DNA from: Acidovorax sp. Leaf160
GTDB lineage: Bacteria > Pseudomonadota > Gammaproteobacteria > Burkholderiales > Burkholderiaceae_C
Direction: 5' to 3'
Assembly (NCBI RefSeq): GCF_001424265.1
Contig: NZ_LMOV01000023.1
Location: forward strand, 607,219 to 671,218
Length of the DNA stretch: 64,000 nucleotides
Shown here: piece by piece, positions 771 through 61,016 of the stretch
How the letters are laid out: every line of letters starts with the position of its first letter
How positions within the stretch are numbered: position 1 is the first letter of the stretch
Notes under the pieces: model-generated
Told to the model about the DNA's origin: nothing
Databases searched by the model: none
What the model saw: only the letters and a program-made list of their open reading frames with translations
Made by a program: the position numbers and the translations under genes

Positions 771-1403
771 TTATTGCGTCACCACGTCGGCGCCTGCAGG
801 TGCCTTGAACTGGAAGGTGGCCGCAGGCAAGGCCGCGTTGGCCTGCATCGAGGCGAACCGGATCTGCGAGCGCTGGCCGAAGCTGTCGAGTATGTCCAGC
901 GCCGCCAGGTTGTCGCCTTCGAAGCCCACGCGCACGCTCTTCAACTGCCCATCGGCTGCCTTGGGCGTGGCGACCACCCACTGCAGGTTGTCCTGGTCGG
1001 GCGCGGGCTGCAGGGTGAAGTCCTTCTGCAGCGCCTTCAGGTCGGGGGCAGAGGCGAGCAGCGCCGCAGGCGTGGAGCCCAGCGCCTGGTCCTGCGACCG
1101 CTGCGTGACCTGGTTCAGGTCGGCGTCGTAGAGCCACAGCGTCTTGCCGTCGGCGACGATGGTCTGCTCGAAAGGCTTCTTGTAGGCGAACTTGAACCGG
1201 CCCGGACGCTGGAATTCGAACGTGCCCGAGGAGGTCTTGACCCGGGGCGCCTGGCCGTCCTTGGCGGGCGAGGTGACGGTCTGCGTGAAGTCGGCTCGGC
1301 CGGACTGCGCGCCCCGCATGAAGGACTCCAGGCTTTTCAGGCCGTCGGCGCTGGCAGATTGGGCGCCTGCAGCTATCAAAAACATAGCAATCCACTGCTT
1401 CAC
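771..1403 (-). CDS. lolA: Outer-membrane lipoprotein carrier protein LolA
   Basis: A 210-residue periplasmic chaperone that carries lipoproteins from LolCDE to the outer membrane. It has a Sec signal peptide (about residues 1-19, ending ASA), then the LolA fold with FTQTVTSP, SGTFEFQRPGRFKFAY and LWLYDADLNQVTQR. The start is GTG at 1403, supported by GGAG just upstream; no ATG fits. It follows ftsK by 115 bp on the same strand, the usual synteny. The hydrophobic core of the signal peptide (IAMFLIAA) is encoded by a copy of the dispersed 17-nt palindrome at 1372-1388. Confidence 0.95.
   Translation of the reverse strand: MKQWIAMFLIAAGAQSASADGLKSLESFMRGAQSGRADFTQTVTSPAKDGQAPRVKTSSGTFEFQRPGRFKFAYKKPFEQTIVADGKTLWLYDADLNQVTQRSQDQALGSTPAALLASAPDLKALQKDFTLQPAPDQDNLQWVVATPKAADGQLKSVRVGFEGDNLAALDILDSFGQRSQIRFASMQANAALPAATFQFKAPAGADVVTQ
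1372..1388. repeat. 17-nt AT-rich palindrome, copy 1 (inside lolA)
   Basis: GCTATCAAAAACATAGC, arms GCTAT/ATAGC. It lies in the signal-peptide codons of lolA and reads GCT-ATG-TTT-TTG-ATA-GC on the minus strand. Confidence 0.9.
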
Positions 1404-1466
1404 GGGGTCTCCTCGGACGAATGGCTAAAGGCTTCAGATGGGGCAACCGCGCCGCCGTTCAAGTCG

Positions 1467-1486
1467 GCGGGCGGTGCGCCGCCCGC
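1467..1486. other. GC-rich stem-loop between ftsK and lolA
   Basis: Perfect 8-bp stem GCGGGCGG/CCGCCCGC with a TGCG loop, in the 115-bp ftsK-lolA gap. There is no U-tract on either side, so it may stabilise or process an ftsK-lolA transcript rather than terminate it. Confidence 0.4.
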
Positions 1487-1518
1487 AGCGGGCCCGGCAC
1501 CGCAGGCTGCCAAGGGCC

Positions 1519-5163
<3,645 letters not shown>

Positions 5164-5173
5164 CAGCGCGGGC

Positions 5174-5587: not shown

Positions 5588-5601
5588 ACAGGAGACCGAC
5601 C

Positions 5602-5772: not shown

Positions 5773-5796
5773 TCCTTCAGCGGCATCGCCTTCAAG

Positions 5797-13874: not shown

Positions 13875-14990
13875 ATGGACTTTGATTTTTCTGATGACCA
13901 GCAATCCCTGCGCGATGCGGTGCGCCGCTGGGTGGACAAGGGTTACGACTTCGAGCGCCGCAAGCGCATCGTGGCGGCAGGCGGCTTCGACCGCGCGGCC
14001 TATGGCGAACTGGCCGAACTCGGGCTGACCGCGCTCACCGTGCCCGAGGCCCACGGCGGGCTGGGCCAGGGCGCCGTGGATGCCATGATGGCCATGGAAG
14101 AGCTGGGCCGAGGCATCGTGCTGGAGCCGCTGGCGCAGGCTTTCATCGTCAGCCGGGTGCTGGCCGGCTACGCCCCCGAAGCCGTGCAGGCCGAGTGGCT
14201 GCCGCGCATCGCGAGCGGCGAGGCCCTGGTGGTGCTGGCACACCAGGAACGCAAGGCCCGCTACCGCCTCGACGTTTGCGAGGCAAAAGCCGCGCAGGCC
14301 GGGGACAGATATACGCTCACAGCTATCAAAAGCATAGTACCGGCGGGTGACCAGGCCGACGCCTTCATCGTGCCTGCGCAACTGGATGGCCGCATCGCCC
14401 TCTTCCTTGTCGAACGCAGTGCCGCAGGCGTCGCCACGCGCGGCTACCGCACGCAGGACGAAAGCCGTGCCGCCGAGGTGCAGCTGGACGGCGCACCGGC
14501 CACGCTCATCACCTCCGACGGCCTGGCCGCACTGGAACTAGCCGTGGACGTGGGCATTGCCACCGCCTGCGCCGAAGCGGTGGGGTTGATGGACCAGACC
14601 CTCGCGCTGACGGTGGACTACATGAACCAGCGCAAGCAGTTCGGCGTGCCGATCGCGAGCTTCCAGGCACTGCGCCACCGCGTGGCCGATGTGAAGATGC
14701 AGCTTGAACTGGCCCGCTCGATGAGCTATTACGCCACGCTCAAGCTGGGCGAAGCGCCGCAGGAGCGCCGCCGCGCCCTCGCCCGCGCCAAGGTGCAGCT
14801 CGGCCAGTCGATGCGCTTCGTGGGCCAGCAATCGGTGCAGCTGCATGGCGGCATCGGCGTGACCGACGAATACATCGGCAGCCACTACTTCAAGAAGCTC
14901 ACCCAGCTGGAAATGACCTGGGGCGACACCCTGCACCACCTGGGCGTGGTGTCGGCGGAGATGGAGGAGACGGCGGGGGTGTTCAGCTAG
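13875..14990 (+). CDS. Acyl-CoA dehydrogenase, small-subunit type
   Basis: A 371-residue acyl-CoA dehydrogenase-fold protein, probably partner of the preceding gene. The N-terminus MDFDFSDDQQSLRDAVRRWV and the C-terminal QLHGGIGVTDEYIGSHYFKKL are typical. In the middle beta domain the usual FAD/acyl contact motifs are weakly conserved, as expected of the less active subunit in heteromeric enzymes. A dispersed 17-nt palindrome (14322-14338) encodes AIKSI within that domain without breaking the frame. The ATG at 13875 follows GGAGA. A strong terminator lies just downstream. Confidence 0.88.
   Translation: MDFDFSDDQQSLRDAVRRWVDKGYDFERRKRIVAAGGFDRAAYGELAELGLTALTVPEAHGGLGQGAVDAMMAMEELGRGIVLEPLAQAFIVSRVLAGYAPEAVQAEWLPRIASGEALVVLAHQERKARYRLDVCEAKAAQAGDRYTLTAIKSIVPAGDQADAFIVPAQLDGRIALFLVERSAAGVATRGYRTQDESRAAEVQLDGAPATLITSDGLAALELAVDVGIATACAEAVGLMDQTLALTVDYMNQRKQFGVPIASFQALRHRVADVKMQLELARSMSYYATLKLGEAPQERRRALARAKVQLGQSMRFVGQQSVQLHGGIGVTDEYIGSHYFKKLTQLEMTWGDTLHHLGVVSAEMEETAGVFS
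14322..14338. repeat. 17-nt AT-rich palindrome, copy 3 (inside an acyl-CoA dehydrogenase gene)
   Basis: GCTATCAAAAGCATAGT; the last base deviates from the arm GCTAT/ATAGC. It is read GCT-ATC-AAA-AGC-ATA in the gene's frame. Confidence 0.85.
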
Positions 14991-15744: not shown

Positions 15745-18135
15745 TCAGCGCAGGAAATTGCGACGCGTGCCTACGAAGAACAGGCCCATCAGCACCGACA
15801 GCATGATCAAGCCCCATTGCGACAACGTCGGAACGGCGTAGGTTTCGGCAGGGATTGCAGCAAAGCTGACAGCCACCGTACACGGCACCGAAACAGCTGC
15901 CGTAGTGAAGGTATCGCCAACCAGCGTGCCGCCGCAAGCGGACCCCCCCGTAGCCACGACAGCGCGGTAGCCGGCCGCAGGCGTGATGGTATAGGTCAGG
16001 GTCGAGCCTGGCGTCGTCACGGGCGTCACGCCCAGCGGCGAGATGGCGCCATTAGGACCCGCGGAAGCAGTCACCTGCAGTGGAACGAAGCTGAATGCAA
16101 CGGTGCAGTCGGTGGTCACCGGATTGATGACATAGCTGTTGCCGCTCAAGCTACCCTGGCACGAGCCATCCGCTTGTGGGAAGTAGCCAGCGTCGGGGAC
16201 CAGGGTGTATGTGACGGACGAGCCTGCGGGCACCGTTTGCAAGCCGGTGGGCGACACCGTGCCGTTCGGGCCAGCTGTTCCGGTGGCCGTGATCGTCGCG
16301 ATGGGCGCGAAGTTGGCGATCACCGTGGAGTCGGCAGTCACGGAAGCGATGTTGCAGGGATTGGCGGTGCCGGTACAGGCGCCGGACCAGCCCACGAACA
16401 CATTGCCCGGCGCTGCCGTGGCGGTCAGGATGACGGAGTTGCCATCTGCTACCGGCATGGAGCAGTTGACCCCGCAATTCAGGCCGCTTGGAACGCTGAC
16501 CACCGTACCGGAGCCTGCACCAGCCTTGGTCAACGACAGCGTACGCAGGGCGCCCACGGAGTTGGCATCGCCAGCCGTGTTGTTGTTGGTATTGCTGTCG
16601 GTGACTTGCGACGGCGGCGTGACAGTGAAGCGCGTGGAAGCGGGAGCCGGGCCAGCGCCAGAAGTCGCGTTGATCGTGTAAACCACGCTGCCGCCCACCG
16701 GAATGTCCATGGATTGTGTGGTGAGTACACCGGTACCGCTACCGGCACCGCAGGAGGCGCCGCCCGCACTGGAACACGTCCAAGCGCCCACCGTCATGCC
16801 GGTGGCAACTTGGTCAAGGGTGGCACCAGCCACAGCCGTGGGGCCGTTGTTGCGCACCGTCACGGTGTACGTCTGCGCGCTGTTCGGCGTGACGGCGGAG
16901 GTGCCGTCGGTCACAGCCACTGTCAAATCGGTCAGTGGGTTCGAGTTGGCGCTTGCCACTTGCGTCTGCACCAGCGGGCCCAGAACCGTGCTGGCACCCG
17001 TGCCAGAAATGCGGTAGTTGCCGTGATTGAGGCTGTTGTTAGGACTGCTGACGCTTGCGGTCGAGGGCACTTTCCAGGTGATTTGGAAGGTGCCGCTGGA
17101 GCGATCAACCAACTGGCCGAAATCACACGATACGGGGCCAGCAGAGCCCACGGCAGGCGTGGTGCAGCTGACGCCTGCGGGCACGCTGACGGACTGAAAT
17201 ACCGCGTCAACATTCCCAGAAGAAGATGCACTCTTTACCTGAGGGCTGATCGCCTCCACGATACTGTTAGACACCACCACGCCACTGTTGTTGGAGTAAG
17301 CGTAGTCATAGGTCACTGTGTCGTCGGGCTTGGTGGTGGTCGGGCCAGTGGCCGACACCAGCAGGCCTGCGAAGAAGGGACCGATGGAGTCGACATAGAC
17401 CTCGCCGGAGTGTCCACCTGCACTACACCCTGCAGCAATCACTTCCACCTCTACGGTGTCGCCTACATCCAGCAGGCCGTTGCCTGGCGCCACATCGATC
17501 GCCTGCCAGCCCGTGTATTGATAGCCACCCAAGGTTTGCCATGGCACGCCGGGCTGGGCCGCAAAATTGAATGTGTAGAAGAGCTTGCTGCCCTTCGTGA
17601 CGTTACGTACTTCCACATAGAAATATGCCTGGCTCTGGGGTGAATGGCCCCCATCCTGGATGACCGGTGCAACGGCCATACGCAAGTGAACCTTGCCGTC
17701 CGACGGATCGACGTCAGCCAGCGTCATCTGCGCAGACTGCTCAATGCCACTGGCCCGGTAGTCCTTGCCGCGAGCATTGACCCGAGCGCTGTAGGTACCC
17801 TGAAACGGGACCTGCACAGGCCCGCCAGCATCGTCCGGCGCCGTCCCAGTTGCTGAATTCGGGCCGCTGACGACCTCTGTCACGGGAGTCGGAGTTCCCG
17901 CGGTCTGCAAATTCAGATCGCTCTTCCGTGTGGGCGGAAACGTTCCAATACCTGTATTTCGATAGTTAGAAACATTCCAGCCGGAGAAATTCCCAGCTTC
18001 GAAATCGCCGTTGACCACGCCACCGTGAGCAGCAGGCGCGGCAACCAGCACCATCCCCAATCCGGCAGCTAGTAAGCCCCGAGCAAACGAGCGAGCCCAT
18101 GCGCCCGCCGCTTTCCAAACATTGACAGCTTCCAA
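15745..18135 (-). CDS. Large secreted DUF11 / InlB-B-repeat protein with IPTL-CTERM sorting tail
   Basis: About 796 residues. A signal peptide (about 1-38, ending APAAHG) is followed by a NGDFEAGNFSGWNVS carbohydrate-binding-like segment. Two DUF11-type beta-sandwich stretches follow (VTYDYAYSNNSGVVVSNSIV; QTYTVTVRNNGPTAVAGATL). Next come three bacterial repeats of the InlB-B type (FVGWSGACTG). The end is VPTLSQWG, a hydrophobic helix and RR, the IPTL-CTERM signal read by exosortase H-type enzymes. No exosortase gene is in the window. Start: TTG at 18135 behind AAGGGG; an alternative TTG at 18270 would add 45 residues in front of the signal peptide. G+C is visibly below the neighbours. Confidence 0.82.
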   Translation of the reverse strand: MEAVNVWKAAGAWARSFARGLLAAGLGMVLVAAPAAHGGVVNGDFEAGNFSGWNVSNYRNTGIGTFPPTRKSDLNLQTAGTPTPVTEVVSGPNSATGTAPDDAGGPVQVPFQGTYSARVNARGKDYRASGIEQSAQMTLADVDPSDGKVHLRMAVAPVIQDGGHSPQSQAYFYVEVRNVTKGSKLFYTFNFAAQPGVPWQTLGGYQYTGWQAIDVAPGNGLLDVGDTVEVEVIAAGCSAGGHSGEVYVDSIGPFFAGLLVSATGPTTTKPDDTVTYDYAYSNNSGVVVSNSIVEAISPQVKSASSSGNVDAVFQSVSVPAGVSCTTPAVGSAGPVSCDFGQLVDRSSGTFQITWKVPSTASVSSPNNSLNHGNYRISGTGASTVLGPLVQTQVASANSNPLTDLTVAVTDGTSAVTPNSAQTYTVTVRNNGPTAVAGATLDQVATGMTVGAWTCSSAGGASCGAGSGTGVLTTQSMDIPVGGSVVYTINATSGAGPAPASTRFTVTPPSQVTDSNTNNNTAGDANSVGALRTLSLTKAGAGSGTVVSVPSGLNCGVNCSMPVADGNSVILTATAAPGNVFVGWSGACTGTANPCNIASVTADSTVIANFAPIATITATGTAGPNGTVSPTGLQTVPAGSSVTYTLVPDAGYFPQADGSCQGSLSGNSYVINPVTTDCTVAFSFVPLQVTASAGPNGAISPLGVTPVTTPGSTLTYTITPAAGYRAVVATGGSACGGTLVGDTFTTAAVSVPCTVAVSFAAIPAETYAVPTLSQWGLIMLSVLMGLFFVGTRRNFLR

Positions 18136-18266
18136 CTCGATCCCCTTGAAATAAATGCACCAACCAACCCGCGCGCTCCGCAAAGGCAACACCCACCAAA
18201 AACCAGCGCACCGCACACACGCGACTGTTTCAGCCCTCGACGGACCGACTGAAAAAAACTGAGAAC

Positions 18267-18947
18267 TCAAGCGACGAAAACGAGACCTCGCCCAAACACA
18301 GAGCGAACCGGCAATGCCAACTGGGTAGCCTCCAAGGTCTTTCGACGCAGACGAGTCAGCTGGGACTCAACTCGGTGGAAACCGTCGTCGGCGTCTTTCG
18401 CACCCACCGCCTCGGTCAAAGCCTGCTTCGTGACCAGAGCGCCCTGCTTAGCCATCAGGCAGTCGAGCAATTCCAGCTCGCGACTGGTCAACTCCACGGC
18501 GAGTTGATTGGGCGCGATCAACCGGGCGCAGGCACGATCCAGACGCCACGACGGCTCCAACTCTGGCCGAGTGATCTGCAGCATCAAGCGGCGCAGCTGC
18601 GACCGGATTCCCGCCACCAGCTCCTCCATGTCCACGGGCTTGACGAAATACTGCAACGCCCCCGAATTCAAGCCCTTAATGCGGCTTTCGAGCTCGGCAC
18701 GTGCAGTCATCAGCACGGTCGCCACGCCCATCTCCGATAGGCGGCGCACAAGGCTCAAGCCATCCTCGCCAGGCAGGCCGATATCCACCACCACCAAGTC
18801 AGCGCGCGTTCGCAAAAGCTGGACGTAGAAGTCCTCGGCCGACTCGGCACCCCAGCTGCGGAATCCCGATTTCGCCAAAAATCGACACACGTTGCCGCGA
18901 ATGTCCTCGTCGTCCTCCACCACGGCTATATCGAATTCCGGCAGCAT
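18267..18947 (-). CDS. OmpR-type response regulator
   Basis: A 226-residue two-component regulator. The receiver domain (1-120) has the acidic pair EDDED near residue 11, the phosphorylated Asp in LVVVDIGLPGEDG, the Thr of VLMTAR and the Lys of YFVKPVD. The C-terminal winged helix (about 135-226) has LTSRELELLDCLMAKQGALV and the RVESQLTRLRRK recognition region. It is divergent from the histidine kinase 59 bp away, its likely partner. The secreted IPTL-CTERM gene follows on the same strand and is a candidate target. Confidence 0.93.
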   Translation of the reverse strand: MLPEFDIAVVEDDEDIRGNVCRFLAKSGFRSWGAESAEDFYVQLLRTRADLVVVDIGLPGEDGLSLVRRLSEMGVATVLMTARAELESRIKGLNSGALQYFVKPVDMEELVAGIRSQLRRLMLQITRPELEPSWRLDRACARLIAPNQLAVELTSRELELLDCLMAKQGALVTKQALTEAVGAKDADDGFHRVESQLTRLRRKTLEATQLALPVRSVFGRGLVFVA

Positions 18948-18964
18948 TCAACAACCAAACGTTA

Positions 18965-18988
18965 ACAATCGGTTTGCATTGTCGATTG
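18965..18988. promoter_or_regulatory. Dyad in the divergent regulator/kinase promoter
   Basis: In the 59-bp gap, CAATCG (18966-18971) pairs with CGATTG (18983-18988), and overlapping ACAAT (18965-18969) pairs with ATTGT (18978-18982). The placement suggests an autoregulatory site for the response regulator; no -35/-10 was assigned. Confidence 0.35.
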
Positions 18989-19006
18989 AGACGACCCTGA
19001 GCTTCC

Positions 19007-21061
19007 ATGCACAAACACTCACGAAAACTCACATTCCGCTGGATCGCTGGAACGCTGTGGCGTCCGCCCCACGTCTGGCTGTTGTTTGCACTGATGCTTC
19101 TTGCTCAAGGCGGGTGTGTGGCGGCAAGCGGCTCACACGCCGAAGGAATCGGCGTTGTGGGAGCTCGTTTGTCAGTCGAGCGCGTCGACGACCCGGGCCA
19201 TGCACTCACCCCCGACGAAGTCGCAGCGCTACACGATGGCCATGTCGTCCCCAACATGCAGTTGCCGCTAAGCGCGGGTTATCTGGACCGGACGGTTTGG
19301 CTGCGCTTCCATAGTCCTGGCGGAGAAAGTTCGGTGCAGCCCTCTCTCTGGCTCCTGGCACGCCCGACTTACGTGGACTCCGTCACGCTGTACCAGCGAG
19401 CGGCCGGCGCGCATGGTTCGTGGCAGGTACAGGCTTCCGGTGATCTGGTGCCCGGCCATGAGAAGGCGGGTGTGCGCCAGCCCTTGTTCGAATTGCAGCC
19501 GCATGCGTTGACGCTGGTCCGCATCCGGACCACCAGCGCGATGCAATTTGACGCGCAACTGCTGACGCAAGCGCAGCTGCGTCAGACGTTGGTCGAGGAC
19601 GAACGTCAGCAGGGACTTTTCTTCGGGATGCTGTTCGCCTTACTGGCGTCCATCGTCGGCGCCACAGCCATTTTTCGCACGCCGCAGCTTTGCGCGCTGG
19701 CTGTGCTGTGCGCCGTGGGCACCCTGCACATATTCAATCTCCACGGATATCTCAGCCTGTGGGTGCCCTCCGGTTTGACCCGGCGGGCGAGCGATGCAGT
19801 GGGAATGGGTGCATTCGGCCTCACCACCGCCCTAGCTTGGCAGATCCGTCTACAGCTGACCTCTGAGCTCCAGCATCGGGCTGTGCGCAAGCTGCTCTCA
19901 GCGGTGGCGTCGGCCGCGGCCTTAGGCATGGCCAGCCCTTTGCTTGGCTTGTACGGGTCCGTCGCCTGGACAAATTTGGTGTTGATAGGCTTGTGCGACT
20001 TGATCGCAATCGCCTTGTGTTGGGCCAACCTGCGCCGCAATCCCCGCAGCGCCGTCAATGGCGTCTTGCTAGCCGCCTATGTAGTGCACGCCCTGTCCGG
20101 CATTCTTCCTGCCTTGGGCTTGCTCGGATGGGTTCGGATGGAGGTGGACGCCACCTTGATCTGGCAAACCGAGATCTTCGTCTTCATGTTGTTGGCCACT
20201 TGCGCCGTCTTCGCCGAAATGGTGGTGCGGTATCGGGATGCGACCGAGGCCCGCGCCGTCGCACTTCGGCATCTCGCGCAATCGGAGCAAATCCTGGAGC
20301 AGCGGGTGAAACAACGCACAGCGGACTTGTTACAGGCGCAGTTCGCGCTGGCACAGGCGTTGGATAGCGAACGCGTGCTGCGGCAGGAGCAGCACCACTT
20401 CTTTCAAATGATCAGCCACGAATTCCGCACGCCTCTGACCGTGATCGACAGCGCCGCATCGGAGCAACTGCGCTTTCCAACACATGCGCTGGAAAACCAG
20501 ACGGAGCGGGCTGCGCAGATCCGGCGAGCCTGCAGGCGACTCACCTCGCTGGTCGACAGCTGCCTCATTACCGATCGAATGGACGCGTCCGGCTTTCACA
20601 TCCTGCCCTCGTCGGTCTCGATCACCGAACTGTTGGAACATGCAGCCCAATTGGTACGGTGGTCGCCACGCCACCAACTGCGCCTGTCGACTCGCGCTGC
20701 GCCCGAAAGCTGGGTGTGCGACGCCACGCTGGTTCGTATCGCCTTGTCCAATCTAGTGGACAACGCGGTCAAGCACGCCAAGGATGGGGAGATCGTGGTC
20801 ACTGCTGCACAGAACCCTGCTGGCCAGCTGGAAATTTCTGTTGCCGATGAGGGGCATGGCATATCGCCACAATCCATCCAGAAGATCTTCGACCAGTTCG
20901 AGCGCGGCCATCGTGCAGACCAGACGCGGGGCTTCGGCCTCGGCCTGTGGGTTGCACGCAGGGTTGCCAGACTCCATGGCGGAGACATCCTTGTCACCTC
21001 GCAGATTGGGCAAGGGACACGTTTCACTATGAGCATTGCCTCGCAGCTCCCGGTCGGTTGA
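19007..21061 (+). CDS. 7TM-DISM sensor histidine kinase
   Basis: A 684-residue membrane kinase. It has a signal/TM segment (about 22-40), a periplasmic 7TMR-DISMED2-like domain (about 50-190, LDRTVWLRFHSP), and seven helices (about 203-405). A coiled coil (about 410-460) leads to HisKA with the phospho-accepting H471 in FFQMISHEFRTPL, and a HATPase domain (about 560-680). Its N box (LSNLVDNAVKHA), G1 (DEGHGI) and G2 (GFGLGL) are intact. DISM sensors usually read carbohydrate-like or other small ligands; the ligand here is unknown. Divergent from the response regulator. G+C is lower than in surrounding core genes. Confidence 0.92.
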   Translation: MHKHSRKLTFRWIAGTLWRPPHVWLLFALMLLAQGGCVAASGSHAEGIGVVGARLSVERVDDPGHALTPDEVAALHDGHVVPNMQLPLSAGYLDRTVWLRFHSPGGESSVQPSLWLLARPTYVDSVTLYQRAAGAHGSWQVQASGDLVPGHEKAGVRQPLFELQPHALTLVRIRTTSAMQFDAQLLTQAQLRQTLVEDERQQGLFFGMLFALLASIVGATAIFRTPQLCALAVLCAVGTLHIFNLHGYLSLWVPSGLTRRASDAVGMGAFGLTTALAWQIRLQLTSELQHRAVRKLLSAVASAAALGMASPLLGLYGSVAWTNLVLIGLCDLIAIALCWANLRRNPRSAVNGVLLAAYVVHALSGILPALGLLGWVRMEVDATLIWQTEIFVFMLLATCAVFAEMVVRYRDATEARAVALRHLAQSEQILEQRVKQRTADLLQAQFALAQALDSERVLRQEQHHFFQMISHEFRTPLTVIDSAASEQLRFPTHALENQTERAAQIRRACRRLTSLVDSCLITDRMDASGFHILPSSVSITELLEHAAQLVRWSPRHQLRLSTRAAPESWVCDATLVRIALSNLVDNAVKHAKDGEIVVTAAQNPAGQLEISVADEGHGISPQSIQKIFDQFERGHRADQTRGFGLGLWVARRVARLHGGDILVTSQIGQGTRFTMSIASQLPVG

Positions 21062-26206: not shown

Positions 26207-26600
26207 AACACGCCTCCTGCCGAAAGAACAAGGATCGGAACGCTGATGTCTCGCGGCGGCCGCGCCGGGCCGCCCGGGAAGCTCGCCCGGCCTTGCCGCT
26301 CACGCACCCGGTGCTCGCTGTGCATGTCACGGAAGCCGGCAGCCCCCCAAGGACGTTCTTCTAGAACCACCGCGTCGTGTGCATCTGCGGCCCCAGGCGG
26401 TCTGCGGCGCTGCAAATCCTCGTGCCAGCTATCGCCATCGATGCAGTTGGCACCTGGCAGCCCGACCTGATCCGCAGTGCGCACTGGCCGCCCGATTCGT
26501 GAAAGAGCATCCCTGGCGCACAATATACTCTTTTCATGACAAATTCGCGTCCAGCGCTTGATTTACCTGCGCGTGACGCTATCAAAAGCAGAGCAAACGG
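26207..26600. other. HNH-ribF divergent intergenic region, no gene
   Basis: 394 bp between the HNH start and ribF. It has the AGGAGG site of the HNH gene at its left end, a TATACT at 26524-26529 that could be a ribF -10 (no good -35), and a palindrome copy at 26578-26594. Small open frames here show no recognisable protein features. Confidence 0.5.
26578..26594. repeat. 17-nt AT-rich palindrome, copy 4 (ribF leader)
   Basis: GCTATCAAAAGCAGAGC, one mismatch in the right arm. It ends six bases before the ribF ATG, so it replaces or covers the place of a Shine-Dalgarno sequence. Confidence 0.8.
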
Positions 26601-27753: not shown

Positions 27754-30633
27754 ATGTCCGAAAACCAACCCACCGCATCCACCCCCGCCGCCGGCACGGA
27801 TTACCGCGCCACGCTGAACCTGCCCGACACGCCCTTCCCCATGCGCGGCGACCTGCCCAAGCGCGAGCCGGGCTGGGTGCAGGAATGGGACGAGAAAGGC
27901 ATCTACAAGCGCCTGCGCGATGCCCGCCGGGGCGCGCCGAAGTTCATCCTGCACGACGGCCCGCCCTACGCCAACGGCCAGATCCACATCGGCCACGCGG
28001 TGAACAAGATCCTCAAGGACATGATCACCAAGGCGCGCCAGCTGGAGGGCTTCGACGCGCTCTACGCTCCGGGCTGGGACTGCCACGGCCTGCCGATCGA
28101 GAACGCCATCGAGAAGACGCACGGCCGCAACCTGCCGCGCGACGAGATGCAGGCCAAGGGCCGCGCCTTCGCCACCGAGCAGATCGCCCAGCAGATGGTG
28201 GACTTCCAACGCCTGGGCGTGCTGGGCGAATGGGACCATCCCTACAAGACCATGAACTTCGCGAGCGAGGCGGGCGAGCTGCGCGCGCTCAAAAAAGTCA
28301 TGGAACGCGGCTTCGTCTACCGGGGCCTCAAGCCCGTCTATTGGTGCTTCGACTGCGGCTCGTCGCTCGCCGAATTCGAGATCGAGTACCAGGACAAGAA
28401 GAGCACCACCCTGGACGTGGCCTTCAAGGCGCACGACAACGCGAAGCTGGCCGCGGCCTTCGGCCTGCCCGCGCTGGACAAGGACGCCTTCGTCGTCATC
28501 TGGACCACCACCGCCTGGACCATCCCCGCCAACCAGGCGCTGAACCTGAACCCCGAGATCCGCTACGCCCTGGTGGACACCGGCGAGCGCGTGCTGCTGG
28601 TGGCCGAACCGCTGGTGGCCGCCTGCCTGGAACGCTACGGCCTCACCGGCAGCGTGATCGCCACCACCGCCGGCCAGCAGCTCGCGGGGCTGGAGTTCGA
28701 GCACCCGCTCTACGACGTGGCGAGCGAGGACGGCAGCTACGGCTACCGGCGCCTGGCCCCGGTCTATCTGGCGGACTACGCCACGGCCGACGACGGCACC
28801 GGCATCGTGCACTCGTCGCCCGCCTACGGCCTGGAAGACTTCAACTCCTGCGTGGCCCACGGCATGGCGCTGGACGACATCCTGAACCCCGTGCAGGGCA
28901 ACGGCGCCTACGCACCGGACTTCCCGCTCTTCGGCGGCCAACACATCTGGAAGGCCGTGCCGGTGGTGATCGAGGCGCTGCGCAACGCCGGCCGCCTGAT
29001 GGCCACCAAGGACATCACGCACAGCTACCCGCACTGCTGGCGCCACAAGACGCCGGTGATCTACCGCGCCGCCGCGCAGTGGTTCATCCGCATGGACGAG
29101 GGCGAGGGCGTGTTCACCGACCCGGCCCAGAAGCCTGCGCAGACCCTGCGCCAGATCGCCCTGGCCGCCATCGAGCAAACGAAGTTCTACCCCGAGAACG
29201 GCAAGTCCCGCCTGCGCGACATGATCGCCGGCCGGCCCGACTGGTGCATCTCCCGCCAGCGCAGCTGGGGCGTGCCCATCCCGTTCTTCCTGCACAAGGA
29301 CTCGGGCGAGCTGCACCCCCGCACCATGGAGATCATGGACCAGGCGGCCGCCATCGTCGAAGCCGGCGGCATCGAGGCCTGGAGCCGCGTGACGGCCGAG
29401 GAAATCCTGGGCGCAGAAGACGCTGCGCACTACACCAAGAGCACCGACATCCTGGAGGTGTGGTTCGACTCCGGCTCCACCTTCTGGCACGTGCTGCGCG
29501 GCACGCACGCCGGCATGCACCACGACAGCGGCCCCGAGGCCGACCTGTACCTCGAAGGCCACGACCAGCACCGCGGCTGGTTCCATTCCTCGCTGCTGCT
29601 GGCCAGCGCCATCTTCGGCCGCGCGCCCTACCGCGGCCTGCTGACGCACGGCTTCACAGTGGACGGCCAGGGCAAGAAGATGAGCAAGTCGCTGGGCAAC
29701 ACGGTGTCGCCCCAGCAGGTGAGCAACAAGCTGGGCGCCGAGATCATCCGCCTGTGGGTGGCCTCCACCGACTATTCGGGCGACCTGGGCATCGACGACA
29801 AGATCCTGGCCCGCGTGGTGGACGCCTACCGCCGCATCCGCAACACGCTGCGCTTCCTGCTGGCCAACGTGAGCGACTTCGATCCCGCCACCGACGCCGT
29901 GCCCTTCCCGCAGATGCTGGAGATCGACCGCTATGCGCTCACGCGAGCCGCCGAGTTCCAGGCCGACCTGCTGGCGCACTACCAGGCCTATGAATTCCAC
30001 CCGGTGGTGGCCAAGCTGCAGCTCTACTGCTCGGAAGACCTGGGCGGCTTCTACCTCGACGTGCTGAAGGACCGGCTCTACACCACGGCCCCCAAGAGCC
30101 TGGCGCGCCGCAGCGCCCAGACCGCGCTCCACCAGATCACGCACGCCATGCTGCGCTGGATGGCGCCCTTCCTGTCCTTCACCGCCGAAGAGGCCTGGAA
30201 GACCTTCGGCCGATCGGATTCGATCTTCCTGGAGACGTACCAGCCCATCGCCAGTGCCGACGAAGGCCTGGCCGCCAAGTGGATGCGCCTGCGCGCCATC
30301 CGCGACGTGGTGAACAAGGAAATCGAAGCGCTGCGCGCCACCGGCCAGGTGGGCTCCTCGCTGCAGACCAACCTGACGCTGACGGCCGCGCCGGAAGACC
30401 ATGCGCTGCTGGCCAGCCTGGGTGACGACCTGAAGTTCGTGTTCATCACGTCCGCTATTGAATTGGTAGCAGGAGACGCCCTATCGATCAGCGTCAAGGC
30501 CAGTTCCGACGCGAAGTGCGAGCGCTGCTGGCACTACCGGGCCGATGTGGGTGCGGACGCCGCCCACCCCACCCTTTGCGGGCGTTGCGTGAGCAACCTG
30601 TACGGCGCAGGCGAATCGCGGGAGCACGCATAA
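27754..30633 (+). CDS. ileS: Isoleucyl-tRNA synthetase
   Basis: A 959-residue class I synthetase charging tRNA-Ile. HIGH is at 78-81 and KMSKS at 642-646. An editing domain in between carries the [13 protein letters not shown] motif. A C-terminal zinc ribbon has CERCWHYR and CGRC. Length is normal for the bacterial type. A dispersed 17-nt palindrome near the 3' end (30454-30470) encodes AIELVA, in a region that varies between species. The stop abuts the lspA start. Confidence 0.97.
30454..30470. repeat. 17-nt AT-rich palindrome, copy 5 (inside ileS)
   Basis: GCTATTGAATTGGTAGC, arms GCTA/TAGC with a G/T mismatch at the fifth pair. It is read GCT-ATT-GAA-TTG-GTA-GC in frame. Confidence 0.85.
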
Positions 30634-40952: not shown

Positions 40953-41002
40953 CCCAGCTGCACCCAGCTGCACCCAGCTGCACCCAGCTGCACCCAGCTG
41001 CA
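40953..41002. repeat. Decamer tandem repeat, five perfect units
   Basis: CCCAGCTGCA repeated exactly five times, preceded and followed by partial matches. Each unit holds the palindrome CAGCTG. It lies in the 108-bp gap between the convergent serine hydrolase and Nudix genes. Confidence 0.95.
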
Positions 41003-41026: not shown

Positions 41027-41881
41027 CTACCAGCCGAAGAACGCCGCCAGCACCAGCGCCGCCTCGGGCGTGAAGGCGCCGGCGGCGAGCCGCGCCTGCA
41101 GCTCGGCCAGGGACAGCGCCTCGAAGCGTTCGACCTCGCCGTCCTGATTCACGGGCTGCATGCCGTGCGGCACGGTGGCGCGGAACCAGTCGATGCGCTC
41201 GACCATGTACCCGGTTTCCGCTTCCCTGCCACCATCGCCGCCGGCCTCGCACGGCCGGGCGAAGTCCACATGGCCGCCGTGCGCCACGCCCTGCAAGGCA
41301 GCGGTCTCCAGGCCCGCCTCTTCCCAGGTTTCACGGGCCAGGGCCTGCTCCAGCGTGTCGGCGGCAGACACCATGCCGCCCATGGTCGTATCCCACATGC
41401 CGGGGTTGGATGGCTTGTCGAAAGCGCGCTGCTGCACCCAGAGCGCGCCCTCCGGCGTCGAGGCCACCAGGTGCACCGCCCGGGTGGTGATGCCCAGAGG
41501 CCGCACGGCCCCGCGCTCCACGGTGCCGATGCGCTGGCCAGCGGCGTCGCACACCGCCAGCTGCTCGTCGCGCCAGGGGCCGCAGTGGCCGGTGGCGCGC
41601 AGCACCCGCGCCAGTGCGTTCAGGGCGGCGGTGGCATCGACCTGGGCTGCATCCGCCGCGCCCAGGTGCCAGATCGACCCGTCGACATGCTCTTTTTTCG
41701 ATAGCACCCAATGCTCATCCAGCAAGCGCTGGGAGGCGATTTCACCAAAAACAAGGGCATCGACGGAGCCGACGGTGTGCCCGCCGACCACGAAAGGCAG
41801 CCGGGGGCGCGCCGCCGGGCGCTGTGCGCGGGCGCGGGCCGCATCGACCCAGCCGGGCCGGGCCACCACGGGCGCGGTCAC
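41027..41881 (-). CDS. Nudix hydrolase with DUF4743 N-terminal domain
   Basis: A 284-residue protein. Residues 1-110 are the DUF4743 region found in Nudix proteins related to the fungal thiamine-pyrophosphokinase partner domain. Residues 115-280 carry the Nudix box GGMVSAADTLEQALARETWEEAGL, with an Asp at the first acidic position and the REXXEE core intact. The substrate may be an oxidised thiamine diphosphate derivative by family analogy; this is inference. The start is GTG at 41881, which overlaps the stop of the upstream quinone oxidoreductase (GTGA), so the two are translationally coupled. Confidence 0.86.
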   Translation of the reverse strand: MTAPVVARPGWVDAARARAQRPAARPRLPFVVGGHTVGSVDALVFGEIASQRLLDEHWVLSKKEHVDGSIWHLGAADAAQVDATAALNALARVLRATGHCGPWRDEQLAVCDAAGQRIGTVERGAVRPLGITTRAVHLVASTPEGALWVQQRAFDKPSNPGMWDTTMGGMVSAADTLEQALARETWEEAGLETAALQGVAHGGHVDFARPCEAGGDGGREAETGYMVERIDWFRATVPHGMQPVNQDGEVERFEALSLAELQARLAAGAFTPEAALVLAAFFGW

Positions 41882-43901: not shown

Positions 43902-43964
43902 GTCCTCGGCCGCAGCCCATCAGGACAAAATCACGCGCCAGCGCCCGTCAACCCAGCACCTGCA

Positions 43965-43981
43965 GCTATTGAATCAATAGC
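43965..43981. repeat. 17-nt AT-rich palindrome, copy 6 (convergent gap)
   Basis: GCTATTGAATCAATAGC, perfect 7-bp arms GCTATTG/CAATAGC, just beyond the stop of the GGDEF-EAL gene in the gap with the converging EamA gene. Confidence 0.9.
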
Positions 43982-43985
43982 ACCC

Positions 43986-47957: not shown

Positions 47958-48788
47958 TCAGAACGTGCCGGGATAGGCGCCGCCGTCCGCCAGCACGTTC
48001 TGACCCGTCATGTAGCCGGCATGCACGCTGCAGAGAAACGCGCAGATGGCGCCGAATTCCTGCGGGGTACCGTAGCGCCCCGCCGGGATGGCGGCCTGCT
48101 GGCTGCGGCGCACGTCGTCCACGCTCTTGCCCGACTTCGACGAAGCGGCCTGCACGGTGGCGGCCAGGCGGTCGGTGTCGAACTTGCCCGGCAGCAGGTT
48201 GTTGATGGTGACCCCCCGGGCCGCGATGCCGCTGCGGGAGGCCCCCGCGACGAAGCCCGTCAGCCCGCTGCGCGCCCCGTTGGACAGGCCCAGGATGTCG
48301 ATGGGCGCCTTCACCGCGCTGGACGTAATGTTGACAATGCGCCCGAAACCGCGCTCGGCCATGCCGTCCACGGTGGCCTTGATGAGTTCGATGGGAGTCA
48401 GCATGTTGGCGTCCACGGCCCGGATCCAGGCGTCCCGGTCCCAGTCGCGGAAGTCGCCCGTGGGCGGCCCGCCGGCGTTGGTCACCACGATGTCGAATGC
48501 CGTGCCCGGGCCGCCTGCCACGCCGAACGCGGCCGATCGGCCTTGCGGCGTGGTGATGTCGGCCGCCACCGCCAGCACTTCAGGCTGAGGGCCTTTCAGC
48601 CCGCCAGCCCTGGTGGCGTCAGCACCTGCCGCTATCAAATAAGTAGCAGCTTCATTCAGCGCGTCCCCATTGCGCGCATTGATGACGACGTTGACGCCTT
48701 CGCGCACCAGCGCCTCGGCGCAGCCCAGGCCCAGCCCCTTGCTCGCGCCGCAGACCAGCGCCCATTTTCCGGCAATACCAAAATCCAT
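47958..48788 (-). CDS. Atypical short-chain dehydrogenase/reductase-like protein
   Basis: A 276-residue Rossmann protein. The cofactor motif is GASKGLGLG near residue 14 and NAG is near 99. The catalytic Ser is in VNITSSAV, but the usual YxxxK is replaced (LGLSNGARSG: Leu for Tyr, Ala for Lys), as in the BKR-like SDR subgroup lacking the standard tetrad. Its enzymatic activity is therefore uncertain. A palindrome copy (48631-48647) lies in an in-frame insertion around residue 50, between NEAA and VLAVAADI. The ATG at 48788 is clear. Confidence 0.88.
   Translation of the reverse strand: MDFGIAGKWALVCGASKGLGLGCAEALVREGVNVVINARNGDALNEAATYLIAAGADATRAGGLKGPQPEVLAVAADITTPQGRSAAFGVAGGPGTAFDIVVTNAGGPPTGDFRDWDRDAWIRAVDANMLTPIELIKATVDGMAERGFGRIVNITSSAVKAPIDILGLSNGARSGLTGFVAGASRSGIAARGVTINNLLPGKFDTDRLAATVQAASSKSGKSVDDVRRSQQAAIPAGRYGTPQEFGAICAFLCSVHAGYMTGQNVLADGGAYPGTF
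48631..48647. repeat. 17-nt AT-rich palindrome, copy 7 (inside the SDR-like gene)
   Basis: GCTATCAAATAAGTAGC on the plus strand, arms GCTA/TAGC. On the gene strand it reads GCT-ACT-TAT-TTG-ATA-GC. Confidence 0.85.
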
Positions 48789-55689: not shown

Positions 55690-55797
55690 GGCTGGGGGCA
55701 AGCGGGCCTCTATTGCTATCATGTTTATAGCTATGGATCCTTATATATCAAGCGCCAAAGGCCAAAAACACTCCGATTTTCAGCAATATGGCCCCGG
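55690..55797. other. AT-rich gap between tatD and the glycosylase gene
   Basis: 108 bp, AT-richer than the surroundings. It contains a palindrome copy and TATATA-like sequence that may include the glycosylase promoter. Confidence 0.45.
55715..55731. repeat. 17-nt AT-rich palindrome, copy 8 (tatD-glycosylase gap)
   Basis: GCTATCATGTTTATAGC, arms GCTAT/ATAGC, followed by a further TAT that extends the AT-rich stretch. Confidence 0.9.
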
Positions 55798-56792: not shown

Positions 56793-57737
56793 ATGCCCCG
56801 GCCCGCCCGCTACAGCCCGTCACGCCGCCCTGCCGCTGGCGGCGCCCTGCCGCCGGATGGCCTGCCGGCGTCCGCCCCGATGGCTCCACCCGATTCCGCG
56901 CCGCCCTCCGGGGCCGCCCCGGCCACCGCCCCGAGCACCGCCCCCATCACCCGCCGCAGCCGCACCGAAACCGTGCTCTGGTCCGCCGTGCTCGTGCTGG
57001 CGGCGCTGCTGGCCGCCGCACTCTGGGCCGGCCGGCAGCCCGCGCCCCAGCGGCTCACGCAGGACGACATCGACGCCGCCGTGCTGCGCACGATGGAAAC
57101 CCGCACCCTGCCCTCGCCCGCGGCACGTGCGGCAGCGGCCGTGGCGCCGTCGGTGGTGCGCGTGGTGGGCTATGGGCGCACCAAGAAGGGCAAGGAGGTG
57201 GAGCGCGGCGTGGGCAGCGGCGTGGTGATCGTCGACCGCGGCGTGATCCTGACCAACCTGCATGTGGTGCAGGGCATGCACCGGGTGCAGGTCACCTTCG
57301 CCGACGGCACCGAGTCGCCCGCGCGCGTCACCGGCATGCAGCCGCAGAACGACTTGGCCGTGCTGCAGGCCCAGCAGGTGCCCGACGACCTGCAGGCCGC
57401 GCCGCTGCGGTCGCTGCAGAACCTGCGCCCGGGCGACCAGGTGGTGGCGCTGGGGTTTCCGTTCGGCATCGGCCCATCGGTGTCGGCGGGCGTCGTCTCG
57501 GGGCTGGAGCGGGAGTTCGACTCGCCCGAGAGCGGCCAGGAGATGCGCAATCTGATCCAGTTCGACGCGGCCGCCAACCCGGGCAATTCGGGCGGGCCGC
57601 TGGTCACCATGGACGGCGAGGTGGTGGGCATCGTCACCGCCATCCTGAACCCCACCTCCGCGCGCACCTTCATCGGCATCGGCTTCGCGGTGCCCATCGA
57701 GAACGCGGCGTCCGCTGTCGGCATGCCGCCCTTCTGA
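56793..57737 (+). CDS. Membrane-anchored trypsin-like serine protease
   Basis: A 314-residue protein with a Pro/Ala-rich cytoplasmic tail (1-~60), one membrane helix (about 62-80), and an extracytoplasmic trypsin fold. Its triad is His in ILTNLHVVQG, Asp in PQNDLAVLQ and Ser in PGNSGGPLV. It resembles DegP/HtrA but has no PDZ domain. The ATG at 56793 follows GAGAGGTGCCC. It is 24 bp before the MoxR-type gene and is likely co-transcribed with the MoxR-DUF58-VWA module. Confidence 0.9.
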   Translation: MPRPARYSPSRRPAAGGALPPDGLPASAPMAPPDSAPPSGAAPATAPSTAPITRRSRTETVLWSAVLVLAALLAAALWAGRQPAPQRLTQDDIDAAVLRTMETRTLPSPAARAAAAVAPSVVRVVGYGRTKKGKEVERGVGSGVVIVDRGVILTNLHVVQGMHRVQVTFADGTESPARVTGMQPQNDLAVLQAQQVPDDLQAAPLRSLQNLRPGDQVVALGFPFGIGPSVSAGVVSGLEREFDSPESGQEMRNLIQFDAAANPGNSGGPLVTMDGEVVGIVTAILNPTSARTFIGIGFAVPIENAASAVGMPPF

Positions 57738-57761
57738 CCGCCGCCCCCCAGGAGCCCGCCC

Positions 57762-58833
<1,072 letters not shown>

Positions 58834-58841
<8 letters not shown>

Positions 58842-59859
58842 CACCGCAGCGCCCGCCCTGCCCCGGCCCGGCGCGGCCGATAGGCTGCTGCAGCACCTGG
58901 AATGGACGGTGCTGCGCCGGCTGGACGGCCTGCTGCAGGGCGACCACCGCACGCTGCTGCGCGGCGCCGGCATCGACCTGGCCGACCTGCGCGCCTACCA
59001 GCCGCACGACGATGTGCGCCACATCGACTGGAACGTCACGGCCCGGCTGGGTGAGCCGCATGTGCGCGTCTTCGCCGAAGACCGCGAGATGGCGGCATGG
59101 TTCCTCGTCGACCTGAGCCCTTCGGTGGACTTCGGCCCGCCGGGCGGCACCAAGCGCGAACTGGCGGCCGGCTTTGTCGCCGTGCTGGCCCGGCTGCTGA
59201 CGCGGCACGGCAACCGCGTGGGCGCCGTGCTGCACCACGGCCGGGGCGCCGCTGCGGCCGACGCGGTACTGCCGGCGCGCGCCAGCCGGGCGCATGTGCT
59301 GCAGCTGCTGCACCAGCTGATCGCGCCGCCGCCTTCCACCGGGCGCAGCGCCCCGCCGCCGGGCGCCACCGAGCTGCACCGGCTGCTGCACACCGCCCAG
59401 AGCCTGCTGCGCCGGCGCAGCACGGTGTTCGTCGTCTCCGATTTCCTCAGCCTGCCCGGCTGGGAGAAGCCGCTCGGCCAGCTGGCGCAGCGCCACGACG
59501 TGGTCGCCGTGCGCCTGCTGGACCCGCTGGAGCGCGAACTGCCCGACGTCGGCCTGGTGCTGCTGCGCGACCCCGAGACCGGCGAGGCGCTGCAGGTGGA
59601 CACGCGCGACCGGGGCTTTCGCCAGCGCTTCGCCCGCCTGGCCGCCGAACAGGAAGCCGGCCTGCGCAGCGCCCTGGCGCGCGCCGGCGCCGACACGCTG
59701 GAGCTGTCGACGGGCGACGATCTGGTGGATGCGCTGGTGCGGTTCCTGGAGCTGCGCGGCCAGCGTCCCCGCGCGCTGCGCGTTCTGCCCGGCCGCCGCG
59801 CCGGGTCCCGGCAGGCCGCCTGCGCACTGGCGGCCGCCACCGCCATGCCGGCCGGCTGA
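58834..59859 (+). CDS. DUF58 domain protein
   Basis: A 341-residue protein of the DUF58/VWA-like family that partners MoxR. The signature is YQPHDDVRHIDWNVTARLGEPHVRVF, with a following MIDAS-like FLVDLSPSVDF where the canonical DxSxS is present. Its role is thought to be in envelope or complex assembly. The ATG at 58834 lies before the MoxR stop, so translation is coupled. It has a long Arg/Ala C-terminal tail. Confidence 0.92.
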
Positions 59860-59887
59860 CGCGCCGCCACCCGCAGGAGCCGCCACC

Positions 59888-60946
59888 ATGGTTTTCCTCT
59901 GGCCCACCTTCCTCTGGCTGCTGCTGGTGCTGCCCGTGCTGGTGCTGGCCTACCTGGCCGTGCTGCGTCGGCGCCGCACGGCCGCCATTCACTATCCCGC
60001 GCTCGGGCTGGTGCGGGCGGCCCTGGGCGCCGGCCCCCGCTGGCGCAGGCATGTGCCGCCCGCGCTCTTCCTGGCAGGTCTGGCGGCGCTGCTGGTGGCC
60101 GGCGCGCGGCCGCTGGCGGTCATCAGCCTGCCGTCGCAGCAGCAGACCGTCATGCTGGCCATCGACGTGTCGGGCAGCATGCGCGCGACCGACGTGCAGC
60201 CCGACCGGCTGACCGCCGCACAGAGCGCCGCCAAGGCCTTCATCGCCGACCTGCCGCGCCACGTGCGGGTGGGCATCGTCGCCTTCGCGGGCAGCGCCCA
60301 GCTGGCGCAACTGCCTACGCAGAGCCATGCAGACCTGACCCAGGCCATCGACAGCTTCCAGCTGCAGCGCGGCACCGCCACGGGCAACGGCATCCTGCTG
60401 TCGCTGGCCACGCTGTTCCCGGGCGCAGGCATCGACATCTCCGCGCTGGGCGGACGGCAGGCCATGCCGGCCACCCCGGCCCGGCCCATCGACGAAGCCG
60501 GGCGCGCGCCTGCCGCGGCCGCCCCGCCGTTCAAGCCGGTGGCACCGGGCTCCTTCCCCTCGGCTGCCATCATCATGCTGACCGACGGCCAGCGCACCAC
60601 GGGCGTCGACCCGCTGGAGGCCGCCCAGTGGGCCGCCGACCGGGGCGTGCGCGTCTACACCGTGGGGGTGGGCACGGTGGCCGGCGAAACCATCGGCTTC
60701 GAGGGCTGGTCGATGCGGGTGCGGCTGGACGAGGCCACGCTCAAGGCCATCGCCCAGCGCACCCAGGGCGAGTACTTCCACGCCGCCACCGCCGAAGACC
60801 TGAAGAAGGTCTACGCCACGCTGAGTTCGCGCCTGGCGGTGGAAAAGAAGGAAACGGAGATCTCCGCACTGCTGGCGCTGGCGGGCGCGGCATTGATGGT
60901 GCTGGCGGCGGCGCTGTCGATGTGGTGGTTCGGGCGGGTGCTCTAG
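59888..60946 (+). CDS. VWA domain membrane protein (BatA-like)
   Basis: A 352-residue inner-membrane protein. Two helices lie near the N-terminus (about 4-25 and 55-75), a vWA domain follows with the metal-site motif AIDVSGSMRATD, and a last helix is near 325-345. Between strands it has a Pro/Ala-rich loop (about 195-215). It is the third gene of a MoxR-DUF58-VWA module related to the bat genes of other bacteria. The ATG at 59888 follows GCAGGAG. Confidence 0.93.
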   Translation: MVFLWPTFLWLLLVLPVLVLAYLAVLRRRRTAAIHYPALGLVRAALGAGPRWRRHVPPALFLAGLAALLVAGARPLAVISLPSQQQTVMLAIDVSGSMRATDVQPDRLTAAQSAAKAFIADLPRHVRVGIVAFAGSAQLAQLPTQSHADLTQAIDSFQLQRGTATGNGILLSLATLFPGAGIDISALGGRQAMPATPARPIDEAGRAPAAAAPPFKPVAPGSFPSAAIIMLTDGQRTTGVDPLEAAQWAADRGVRVYTVGVGTVAGETIGFEGWSMRVRLDEATLKAIAQRTQGEYFHAATAEDLKKVYATLSSRLAVEKKETEISALLALAGAALMVLAAALSMWWFGRVL

Positions 60947-60999
60947 CCGCCGATTCAGGACGTTTTCGGGCGGCACCGCCCAACACATCTGCGCGTTCA

Positions 61000-61016
61000 G
61001 CTATGAAAAGCATAGC
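61000..61016. repeat. 17-nt AT-rich palindrome, copy 9
   Basis: GCTATGAAAAGCATAGC, arms GCTAT/ATAGC, about 30 bp upstream of the Fur-box-like site. Confidence 0.9.

What the first reader, a model, noticed from the sequence alone, without database searches (positions are those of the whole stretch)
1372..61016. Nine copies of a 17-nt AT-rich palindrome family scattered through genes and gaps
Seen directly: GCTAT-N7-ATAGC-type sequences of fixed 17-nt length at 1372, 9819, 14322, 26578, 30454, 43965, 48631, 55715 and 61000, in a GC-rich genome where such AT-rich words should be rare. The spacer is often CAAAANC or TGAATNN. Five copies are intergenic and four lie inside genes. A weaker tenth candidate is at 41689-41705 inside the Nudix gene. 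Constant length with varying spacers and conserved arms suggests selection on a protein-binding or RNA-hairpin site, or a spreading element. I know of no assigned function for this motif.
Basis: partly seen in the sequence, partly recalled or inferred. Interest (0 to 1): 0.75.

Follow-up and report, generated by a model that had tools for sequence, protein, structure and literature searches.

The report
Dialect-switching 66-base chromosome tags
The 17-base palindromes are the left ends of a 66-base DNA tag found at hundreds of places in the chromosomes of Acidovorax-type bacteria, inside and between genes, and related species spell the middle of the tag differently at the same places; the tags are likely read as 'self' DNA, possibly during DNA uptake.

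Summary
In detail: 5 exact GCTAT-N7-ATAGC against 0.01 expected, and 274 in the 4.72-Mb genome against 0 for the reversed pattern. In 864 kb there are 87 elements. It is a double-stranded DNA signal: no base-pair covariation. At lolA it is no insertion: tag-free P. cattleyae has a signal peptide of the same length. It avoids promoter gaps. In the genus 11 of 17 genomes are P1-rich, 6 poor. The middle module is lineage-specific: GCGC-type here, GGCGGCATGG-type in G009/G011, a third form in G010. At 9 of 10 syntenic G009/G011 loci, own or G004 sequence holds a profile-type (GCGC) element at the same place. The pattern resembles uptake signal sequences, but no receptor was found, the host's comEC is truncated, and minor-pilin type does not track dialect. 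Fragments were published in 2017 without function.

The parts
55712..55778 (+). Best window copy of the 66-bp element: P1 55715-55731, P2 55737-55755, P3 55760-55772, A-tract 55775-55777; intergenic
   Evidence: profile score 79; orthologous gap read in 16 other species of the genus
1325..1391 (-). Element with P1 1372-1388, inside the lolA signal-peptide codons
   Evidence: score 53; LolA PF03548
9772..9838 (-). Element with P1 9819-9835, intergenic
   Evidence: score 45
14275..14341 (-). Weak element with P1 14322-14338 (one arm mismatch) inside an acyl-CoA dehydrogenase gene
   Evidence: score 17; Pfam
26531..26597 (-). Element with P1 26578-26594, between divergent genes
   Evidence: score 57; gene context
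30451..30517 (+). Element with P1 30454-30470, inside ileS
   Evidence: score 36; tRNA synthetase domains
41686..41752 (+).
   Evidence: score 50; element at the same place in G004, score 56
43918..43984 (-). Element with P1 43965-43981, between convergent genes
   Evidence: score 56; none at the matching place in G004
48584..48650 (-). Element with P1 48631-48647, inside a short-chain dehydrogenase gene
   Evidence: score 29; element in G004, score 41
60953..61019 (-). Element with P1 61000-61016, intergenic
   Evidence: score 56

Best explanation
The palindromes are the left ends (P1) of a 66-bp DNA tag repeated hundreds of times in the chromosome, and the tag is likely a self-recognition sequence read by a sequence-specific DNA receptor, most probably of the DNA-uptake (USS/DUS) type. 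Shown: fixed register P1 (GCTAT-N7-ATAGC), linker, middle module, AT tract, A-tract; DNA-level constraint inside genes; no length change at lolA against a tag-free sister; lineage-specific middle modules at the same loci; a decayed remnant in tag-poor sister species at one site read by eye. Inferred: a receptor binds P1 as a constant anchor plus the middle module; kin DNA that carries the current spelling is favoured when taken up and recombined, so that biased exchange keeps hundreds of sites uniform and lets the spelling drift together. Untested: competence of any carrier, the receptor, and any effect of the tag on uptake.
For: Copy number and specificity: 274 exact P1, control 0; R1 profile hits in 65 of 150 family genomes and in 5 of 150 of an order-wide draw, three of the five in the window's family (both counts include G000). 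DNA not RNA. In place: of 18 lolA starts scoring 15 or more, 17 use the rare codon ATA there (16 ATA-GCT), tag-free P. cattleyae ATC-GCG at equal length; 13 of 73 ATA codons lie in elements that cover 0.26% of gene bases. Site conservation: of 14 own elements with a syntenic G004 place, 9 have one scoring 26 or more, 3 score 9-11, 2 have none. Dialects, exact-P1 sites with GCGC at +37 to +40: own 41 of 48, G004 24 of 38, four other genera 26 of 26 (those were picked as best profile hits), G009 0 of 30, G010 0 of 15, G011 0 of 15; GGCGRCAY-type words: 0 of 48, 0 of 38, 0 of 26 against 28 of 30, 15 of 15, 15 of 15 (word list made). Same loci: 9 of 10 syntenic G009/G011 sites have a profile-type element (score 36-84) in own or G004. 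Features listed for USS in PMC1626085 (passages) and PMC1852404 (passages) that also hold here: more perfect than singly mismatched cores (48 v 20 own, 38 v 27 G004), no strand bias (25 of 57 v 24 of 53, counted), 59 of 87 copies non-coding, enriched tail-to-tail and depleted head-to-head (19 v 4), some opposite pairs, clade dialects, not insertions, long-lived sites. One element as query matched 4 of 72,556 plasmid and 0 of 50,697 phage records; this query misses diverged copies.
Against: The host's comEC lacks the first 308 of 870 residues, yet its P1 arms are better conserved than in G004. ComEC and GspH/FimT families occur in tagged and untagged species alike (34 of 35 and 35 of 35). Minor-pilin operons come in two unrelated types, and the profile's dialect occurs with both. 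Density (1 per 7-10 kb) is about a tenth of the 1 per kb given for USS/DUS. 66 bp is twice the 32 nt given for USS (PMC12616744, passage). The helical-phasing test failed (P 0.26, 0.48, 0.65). Tagged genomes can lack a given site: L108 and L154 have tags but none at lolA. Sites are not fully independent: in G004 P2 centres and, slightly, P1 spacers are shared more than column shuffles allow. I made no search for reports of competence; one search for 'DNA uptake sequence' with Comamonadaceae gave 0 papers.
Confidence: 0.4

Rival explanations
1. The tag is the binding site of an unidentified intracellular multi-protein complex (nucleoid architecture or topology), with one protein on P1 and another on the middle module; the second protein changed specificity in G009/G010/G011.
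For: Long multi-part site; spread round the chromosome (1-6 per 20-kb slice in 40 of 40 slices of G004); few plasmid matches; promoter gaps avoided.
Against: A cytoplasmic protein with hundreds of sites should be locked in its specificity, yet the module differs between species of one genus. 58-63 bits (uncorrected) is about four times the 14 bits needed to mark these sites (hand calculation). No regional or replichore pattern. HU/IHF family counts (2-5 per genome) do not track the tag.
Confidence: 0.32
2. A copying process (non-allelic gene conversion, homing or a RAYT-like transposase) rewrites the middle module at existing P1 sites.
For: Within-genome uniformity of the module; in G004 28 identical P2 11-mer pairs against 0.2 expected, 24 reverse-complement pairs against 0.13, and a small excess of identical P1 spacers (14 pairs, mean 4.7, largest 12 in 200 shuffles); in G000 the closest pair shares 57 of 70 positions, 47-54 in shuffles.
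Against: Flanks are unrelated and own P1 spacers show no excess sharing; two orientations of a near-palindromic P2 would by themselves give much of the P2 sharing; the coding copy in lolA keeps its length.
Confidence: 0.12
3. The copies are transcription terminators or other RNA hairpins.
For: In co-directional gaps 20 of 36 begin within 20 bp of the upstream stop; convergent gaps are enriched; some inverted double forms look like intrinsic terminators.
Against: Paired cells 71.8% against shuffled mean 71.8%; 23 of 87 lie inside genes, on either strand; one lies in the lolA signal peptide.
Confidence: 0.06
4. The copies are operators of one transcription factor.
For: P1 looks like the palindromic operator of a dimeric repressor (recalled).
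Against: 4 elements for 24.6 kb of divergent gaps against 19 for 11.8 kb of convergent gaps (gaps of 70 bp or more); 23 of 87 inside genes; 66-bp constraint.
Confidence: 0.04

Closest known systems
Uptake signal sequences (USS) of Pasteurellaceae (PMC1626085, PMC1852404, PMC12616744; passages seen)
   Same: Dispersed in genes and gaps, no strand bias, perfect copies outnumber one-off copies, AT-rich segments beside a core, clade dialects, arise in place, inverted pairs serve as terminators
   Different: USS: 9-bp core, up to 32 nt, about 1 per kb, shown to steer uptake. Here: 66 bp, palindromic anchor plus exchangeable module, 1 per 7-10 kb, uptake untested, host with truncated comEC
DNA uptake sequences (DUS) of Neisseriaceae (same papers, passages)
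   Same: Dialects within a family, tail-to-tail enrichment
   Different: Continuous, up to about 13 nt, receptor ComP known; no receptor identified here
Motif pairs GCTTAT(N)5AAGCG (Acidovorax ebreus, 114 copies) and ATAGCT(N)22CAAAAG (Polaromonas naphthalenivorans, 125 copies), PMC5217627 Table 7 (section 13 read, other passages seen)
   Same: By position they fit P2 and the stretch +12 to +45 of this element; intergenic bias, 44 convergent against 4 divergent in A. ebreus
   Different: Reported there as separate novel motifs without function; section 13 does not link them and gives no P1, 66-bp unit or dialects. I did not search those two genomes
BRE of Bordetella and Comamonadaceae (PMC3110155, passages seen)
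   Same: Dispersed repeat of 75-91 bp, mostly intergenic, some in genes
   Different: GC-rich (69%), 1-29 copies per Comamonadaceae genome listed
REP/REPIN/BIME repeats (recalled)
   Same: Hundreds of short palindromic repeats near gene 3' ends
   Different: Here no hairpin covariation, many copies in genes, in-place conservation at lolA

Membership tests
USS/DUS uptake signals | Steers DNA uptake in natural transformation | not testable with these tools
   needs uptake assays
USS/DUS uptake signals | Dispersed copies at about 1 per kb | tested here: not met
   hundreds of copies, but 1 per 7-10 kb
USS/DUS uptake signals | Copies arise in place, not by insertion | tested here: met
   tested at one gene, lolA: equal length in tag-free P. 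cattleyae
USS/DUS uptake signals | No orientation bias | tested here: met
   plus strand 25 of 57 and 24 of 53 in the two replichores of G004 (ori and ter placed by GC skew)
USS/DUS uptake signals | More perfect than one-off cores | tested here: met
   48 v 20 own, 38 v 27 G004; the profile was trained on exact cores, which favours this
USS/DUS uptake signals | Clade dialects | tested here: met
USS/DUS uptake signals | Intact uptake machinery in carriers | tested here: inconclusive
   ComEC family in 34 of 35 genomes, but truncated in the host
USS/DUS uptake signals | Minor-pilin receptor that tracks the signal | tested here: not met
   the one operon looked at, in 14 genomes: two unrelated types share one dialect
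REP/MITE mobile repeats | Copies share descent as a unit and insert | tested here: not met
   unrelated flanks, equal length at lolA, shared places; but see P2 sharing
Structured RNA or terminator | Compensatory base-pair changes | tested here: not met
   no Rfam match at gathering threshold in the window
Chromosome-organising sites (matS, parS, SlmA and Noc sites; recalled) | Regional distribution on the chromosome | tested here: not met
   1-6 elements in each of 40 slices round G004

The most novel reading that the evidence does not exclude
A chromosome-wide rewritable address: a constant palindromic anchor marks hundreds of loci, and each lineage respells the adjoining 30-bp module at them to a new common form, inside genes as well, through a recognition system of a kind not yet described.
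Probability: 0.35. Interest if true: 0.88.

Novelty: new variant of a known kind. Interest (0 to 1): 0.74.

Why it matters
It joins two unexplained published motifs into one element and shows that a signal of about 60 bits is kept at hundreds of loci, even through rare codons of lolA, while its spelling changes in concert between sister species. That makes a sharp test case for molecular drive against selection on binding sites. If it steers DNA uptake it would add an uptake-signal system beside USS and DUS and imply natural competence in a large environmental bacterial group. If not, an unknown chromosomal DNA-reading system exists there.

Tried and rejected
RNA structure: rejected. Mobile repeat: disfavoured. 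Transcription-factor regulon: disfavoured. Ter/ori or KOPS-like signal: disfavoured. Helical 10.5-bp phasing: looked plausible by eye but failed a block shuffle (P 0.26, 0.48, 0.65). ComEC, GspH/FimT and HU/IHF families: no split between tagged and untagged species. Minor-pilin operon type: does not track dialect. Short-spacer CTATNGTAGC dialect in the poor genomes: 0 in 281 kb sampled; at the one orthologous site read, the poor species hold a short remnant, judged by eye. Rfam: none in the window. The last part (a null for the orientation procedure) crashed and was not repeated; the G009 module was judged by eye and, whose word list was made after seeing the data. In one search some query modules (L426, L429, L437) are printed in the wrong orientation; I used the orientation. 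One search printed 14 pairs; I count the 10 G009/G011 loci and left out two G014 loci (one with a partner, one without). G014 gave only 5 sites and is not used for dialects. In one search I chose 41 of the 80 ftsK loci, and 5 of those 41 could not be parsed.

Full report
Observation. The window holds five exact GCTAT-N7-ATAGC palindromes (0.01 expected). The genome in which it lies (G000, 4,717,897 bases, 29 contigs) holds 274, and the reversed control pattern none. In the top list these arms are enriched with spacer 7 (20 against 0.03 expected in 400 kb).

Anatomy. Forty-eight exact sites from 864 kb of the genome were aligned. Sequence outside the 17-mer is conserved in one fixed register on one side, from -3 to about +63. 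The parts are TTT, P1 (GCTAT-N7-ATAGC), a 5-base linker, P2 (19 bases ending in RRGCGC at +35 to +40), GGCC-N2-ATTT-GRCT, then AAA at +61 to +63. A profile of it finds 77 elements in 800 kb plus 10 in the window at a score of 10 or more, none in 800 kb of Markov-resampled sequence at 6 or more. The information total is 58 bits in G000 and 63 in G004, not corrected for selection by the profile. In four other genera (40 elements, picked as the best profile hits) the consensus is TTTGCTATTAATTTaATAGCTGCTaGCGCTTGaTgGACAAGCGCTGGAGGCCgATTTGGCTTaAAA. P2 has palindromic arms, and in G004 its centre occurs in both orientations relative to P1 (24 reverse-complement pairs, 0.13 expected; in G000 none).

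DNA, not RNA. With three possible stems written out, 71.8% of cells pair and the shuffled mean is 71.8%. Of 23 genic copies 17 run with the gene and 6 against it.

Where it lies. Of 87 elements 59 are intergenic, 23 genic and 5 partial, although called genes cover 87% of the sequence (my own gene caller). Elements in convergent, co-directional and divergent gaps number 19, 36 and 4, while gaps of 70 bp or more of these kinds hold 11.8, 66.9 and 24.6 kb. In co-directional gaps 20 of 36 begin within 20 bp of the upstream stop. Spacing is close to random (CV 0.90 and 1.05). In the closed genome G004 each of 40 slices of 20 kb holds 1 to 6 (110 in all), with no strand bias between replichores.

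Kept in place. The copy at window 1325-1391 encodes the LolA signal peptide. In one search I read the start of lolA in the window and in 41 of the 80 ftsK loci; 37 of the 42 rows could be parsed, and 18 of them carry a profile score of 15 or more there, in Acidovorax, Simplicispira, Rhodoferax, Curvibacter, Comamonas, Polaromonas and unnamed Burkholderiales. Seventeen of the 18 use the codon ATA at that place (16 ATA-GCT, L118 ATA-GCG); L134 has ATC-GCT. Tag-free P. cattleyae encodes a peptide of the same length with ATC-GCG. Two loci that hold tags elsewhere, L108 and L154, lack one at lolA. ATA is 73 of 9,811 isoleucine codons, and 13 of the 73 lie in elements that cover 0.26% of gene bases. 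Of 14 own elements with a syntenic place in the G004 slices, 9 have an element scoring at least 26, 3 score 9 to 11, and 2 have none. At the gap orthologous to window 55715 five other tagged species score 39 to 56, the three other-dialect species 10 to 17, and G006 and G016 stay below 8 although a P1-like sequence is visible; the six poor species show only a short remnant such as CTATSGTAGC, read by eye.

Who has it. Exact P1 counts in the genus: 11 of 17 genomes have 78-274, six have 10-15 with controls of 0-2; the six poor genomes have 1-4 profile hits. Profile hits: 65 of 150 family genomes (at most 34 candidates scored per genome) and 5 of 150 in an order-wide draw, three of those five being members of the window's family. 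Thirty-five of 80 named ftsK loci hold at least one hit at 15 or more; hits were found in 1 of 12 Variovorax, 0 of 6 Ramlibacter, 0 of 3 Limnohabitans and 0 of 2 Xenophilus loci.

Dialects. G009, G010 and G011 have 202, 126 and 200 exact P1 but only 20, 21 and 14 profile hits, against 149-150 (the cap is 150) in the other eight tagged genomes. Their P1 sites carry another module: AAACTATTSAATGGATCCGGCGGCATGGAG in G009 and G011, and a third form, (T/A)AACTATGTAATATTTACGGCGACATGG, in G010. The kinds exclude each other in the sites examined: GCGC at +37 to +40 in 41 of 48 own, 24 of 38 G004 and 26 of 26 sites of four other genera, none in 60 sites of G009-G011; GGCGRCAY-type words in 58 of those 60, none in the 112 others. 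Ten G009/G011 loci had a syntenic place in the own, G004 or named sequences compared, and nine of these hold a profile-type element there with scores 36 to 84. Own sites are a mixture: some read ACCCAATGAATACGGGCGC, half way to the G009 form, others GCGCTTATATATCAAGCGC. So the middle module was respelled in place, lineage by lineage, while P1 stayed.

Mechanism. A sequence-specific reader of double-stranded DNA is the reading that best fits in-place constraint on both strands, in genes and gaps. I prefer a reader that acts on exchanged DNA, as for uptake signals, because biased exchange explains high information, uniformity at hundreds of sites and drift in concert, and because the features of USS given in PMC1626085 and PMC1852404 (passages seen) largely match, density excepted. 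Against it stand the truncated comEC of the host, the lack of tracking by minor-pilin operons, the size of the site and the failed phasing test. An intracellular complex is almost as likely. All steps beyond the sequence facts are inference.

Literature. PMC5217627 (section 13 read, other passages seen) lists GCTTAT(N)5AAGCG in A. ebreus and ATAGCT(N)22CAAAAG in P. naphthalenivorans as novel motifs with no function; by position both fit this element, though I did not search those genomes. Ten paper searches listed nothing that describes the whole element; subscription papers are not in that library.

Noticed in passing
L402:1649-3322 (G000 C23, outside the window): The host's comEC matches only residues 309-862 of the 870-residue G004 protein; the N-terminal third is missing in the 6 kb read, so this strain may not be transformable.
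   Followed up: partly
L404-L417: Minor-pilin operons of the genus come in two unrelated types with different neighbours (about 25-30% identity over the long matches between types).
   Followed up: partly
L104:13638, L105:13660, L117:13694, L118:14845, L124:15134 and others: A second, minus-oriented tag lies 1.2-2.6 kb downstream of the lolA tag in several genera; whether it is inside a gene was not checked.
   Followed up: no
window 40955-40995: A run of CAGCT-containing repeats with a 10-base step, seen in the palindrome scan.
   Followed up: no
window 16001-20000: GC drops to 0.616 against 0.688 for the whole window.
   Followed up: no
L244, L247, L283, L295, L304, L313, L321: IMG/VR contigs that carry one to three high-scoring tags; host flanks or phages of tagged hosts.
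   Followed up: no
L213:59, L115:16648, L125:20891, L140:8089: Symmetric double forms of the element look like intrinsic terminators (stem followed by a T run).
   Followed up: partly
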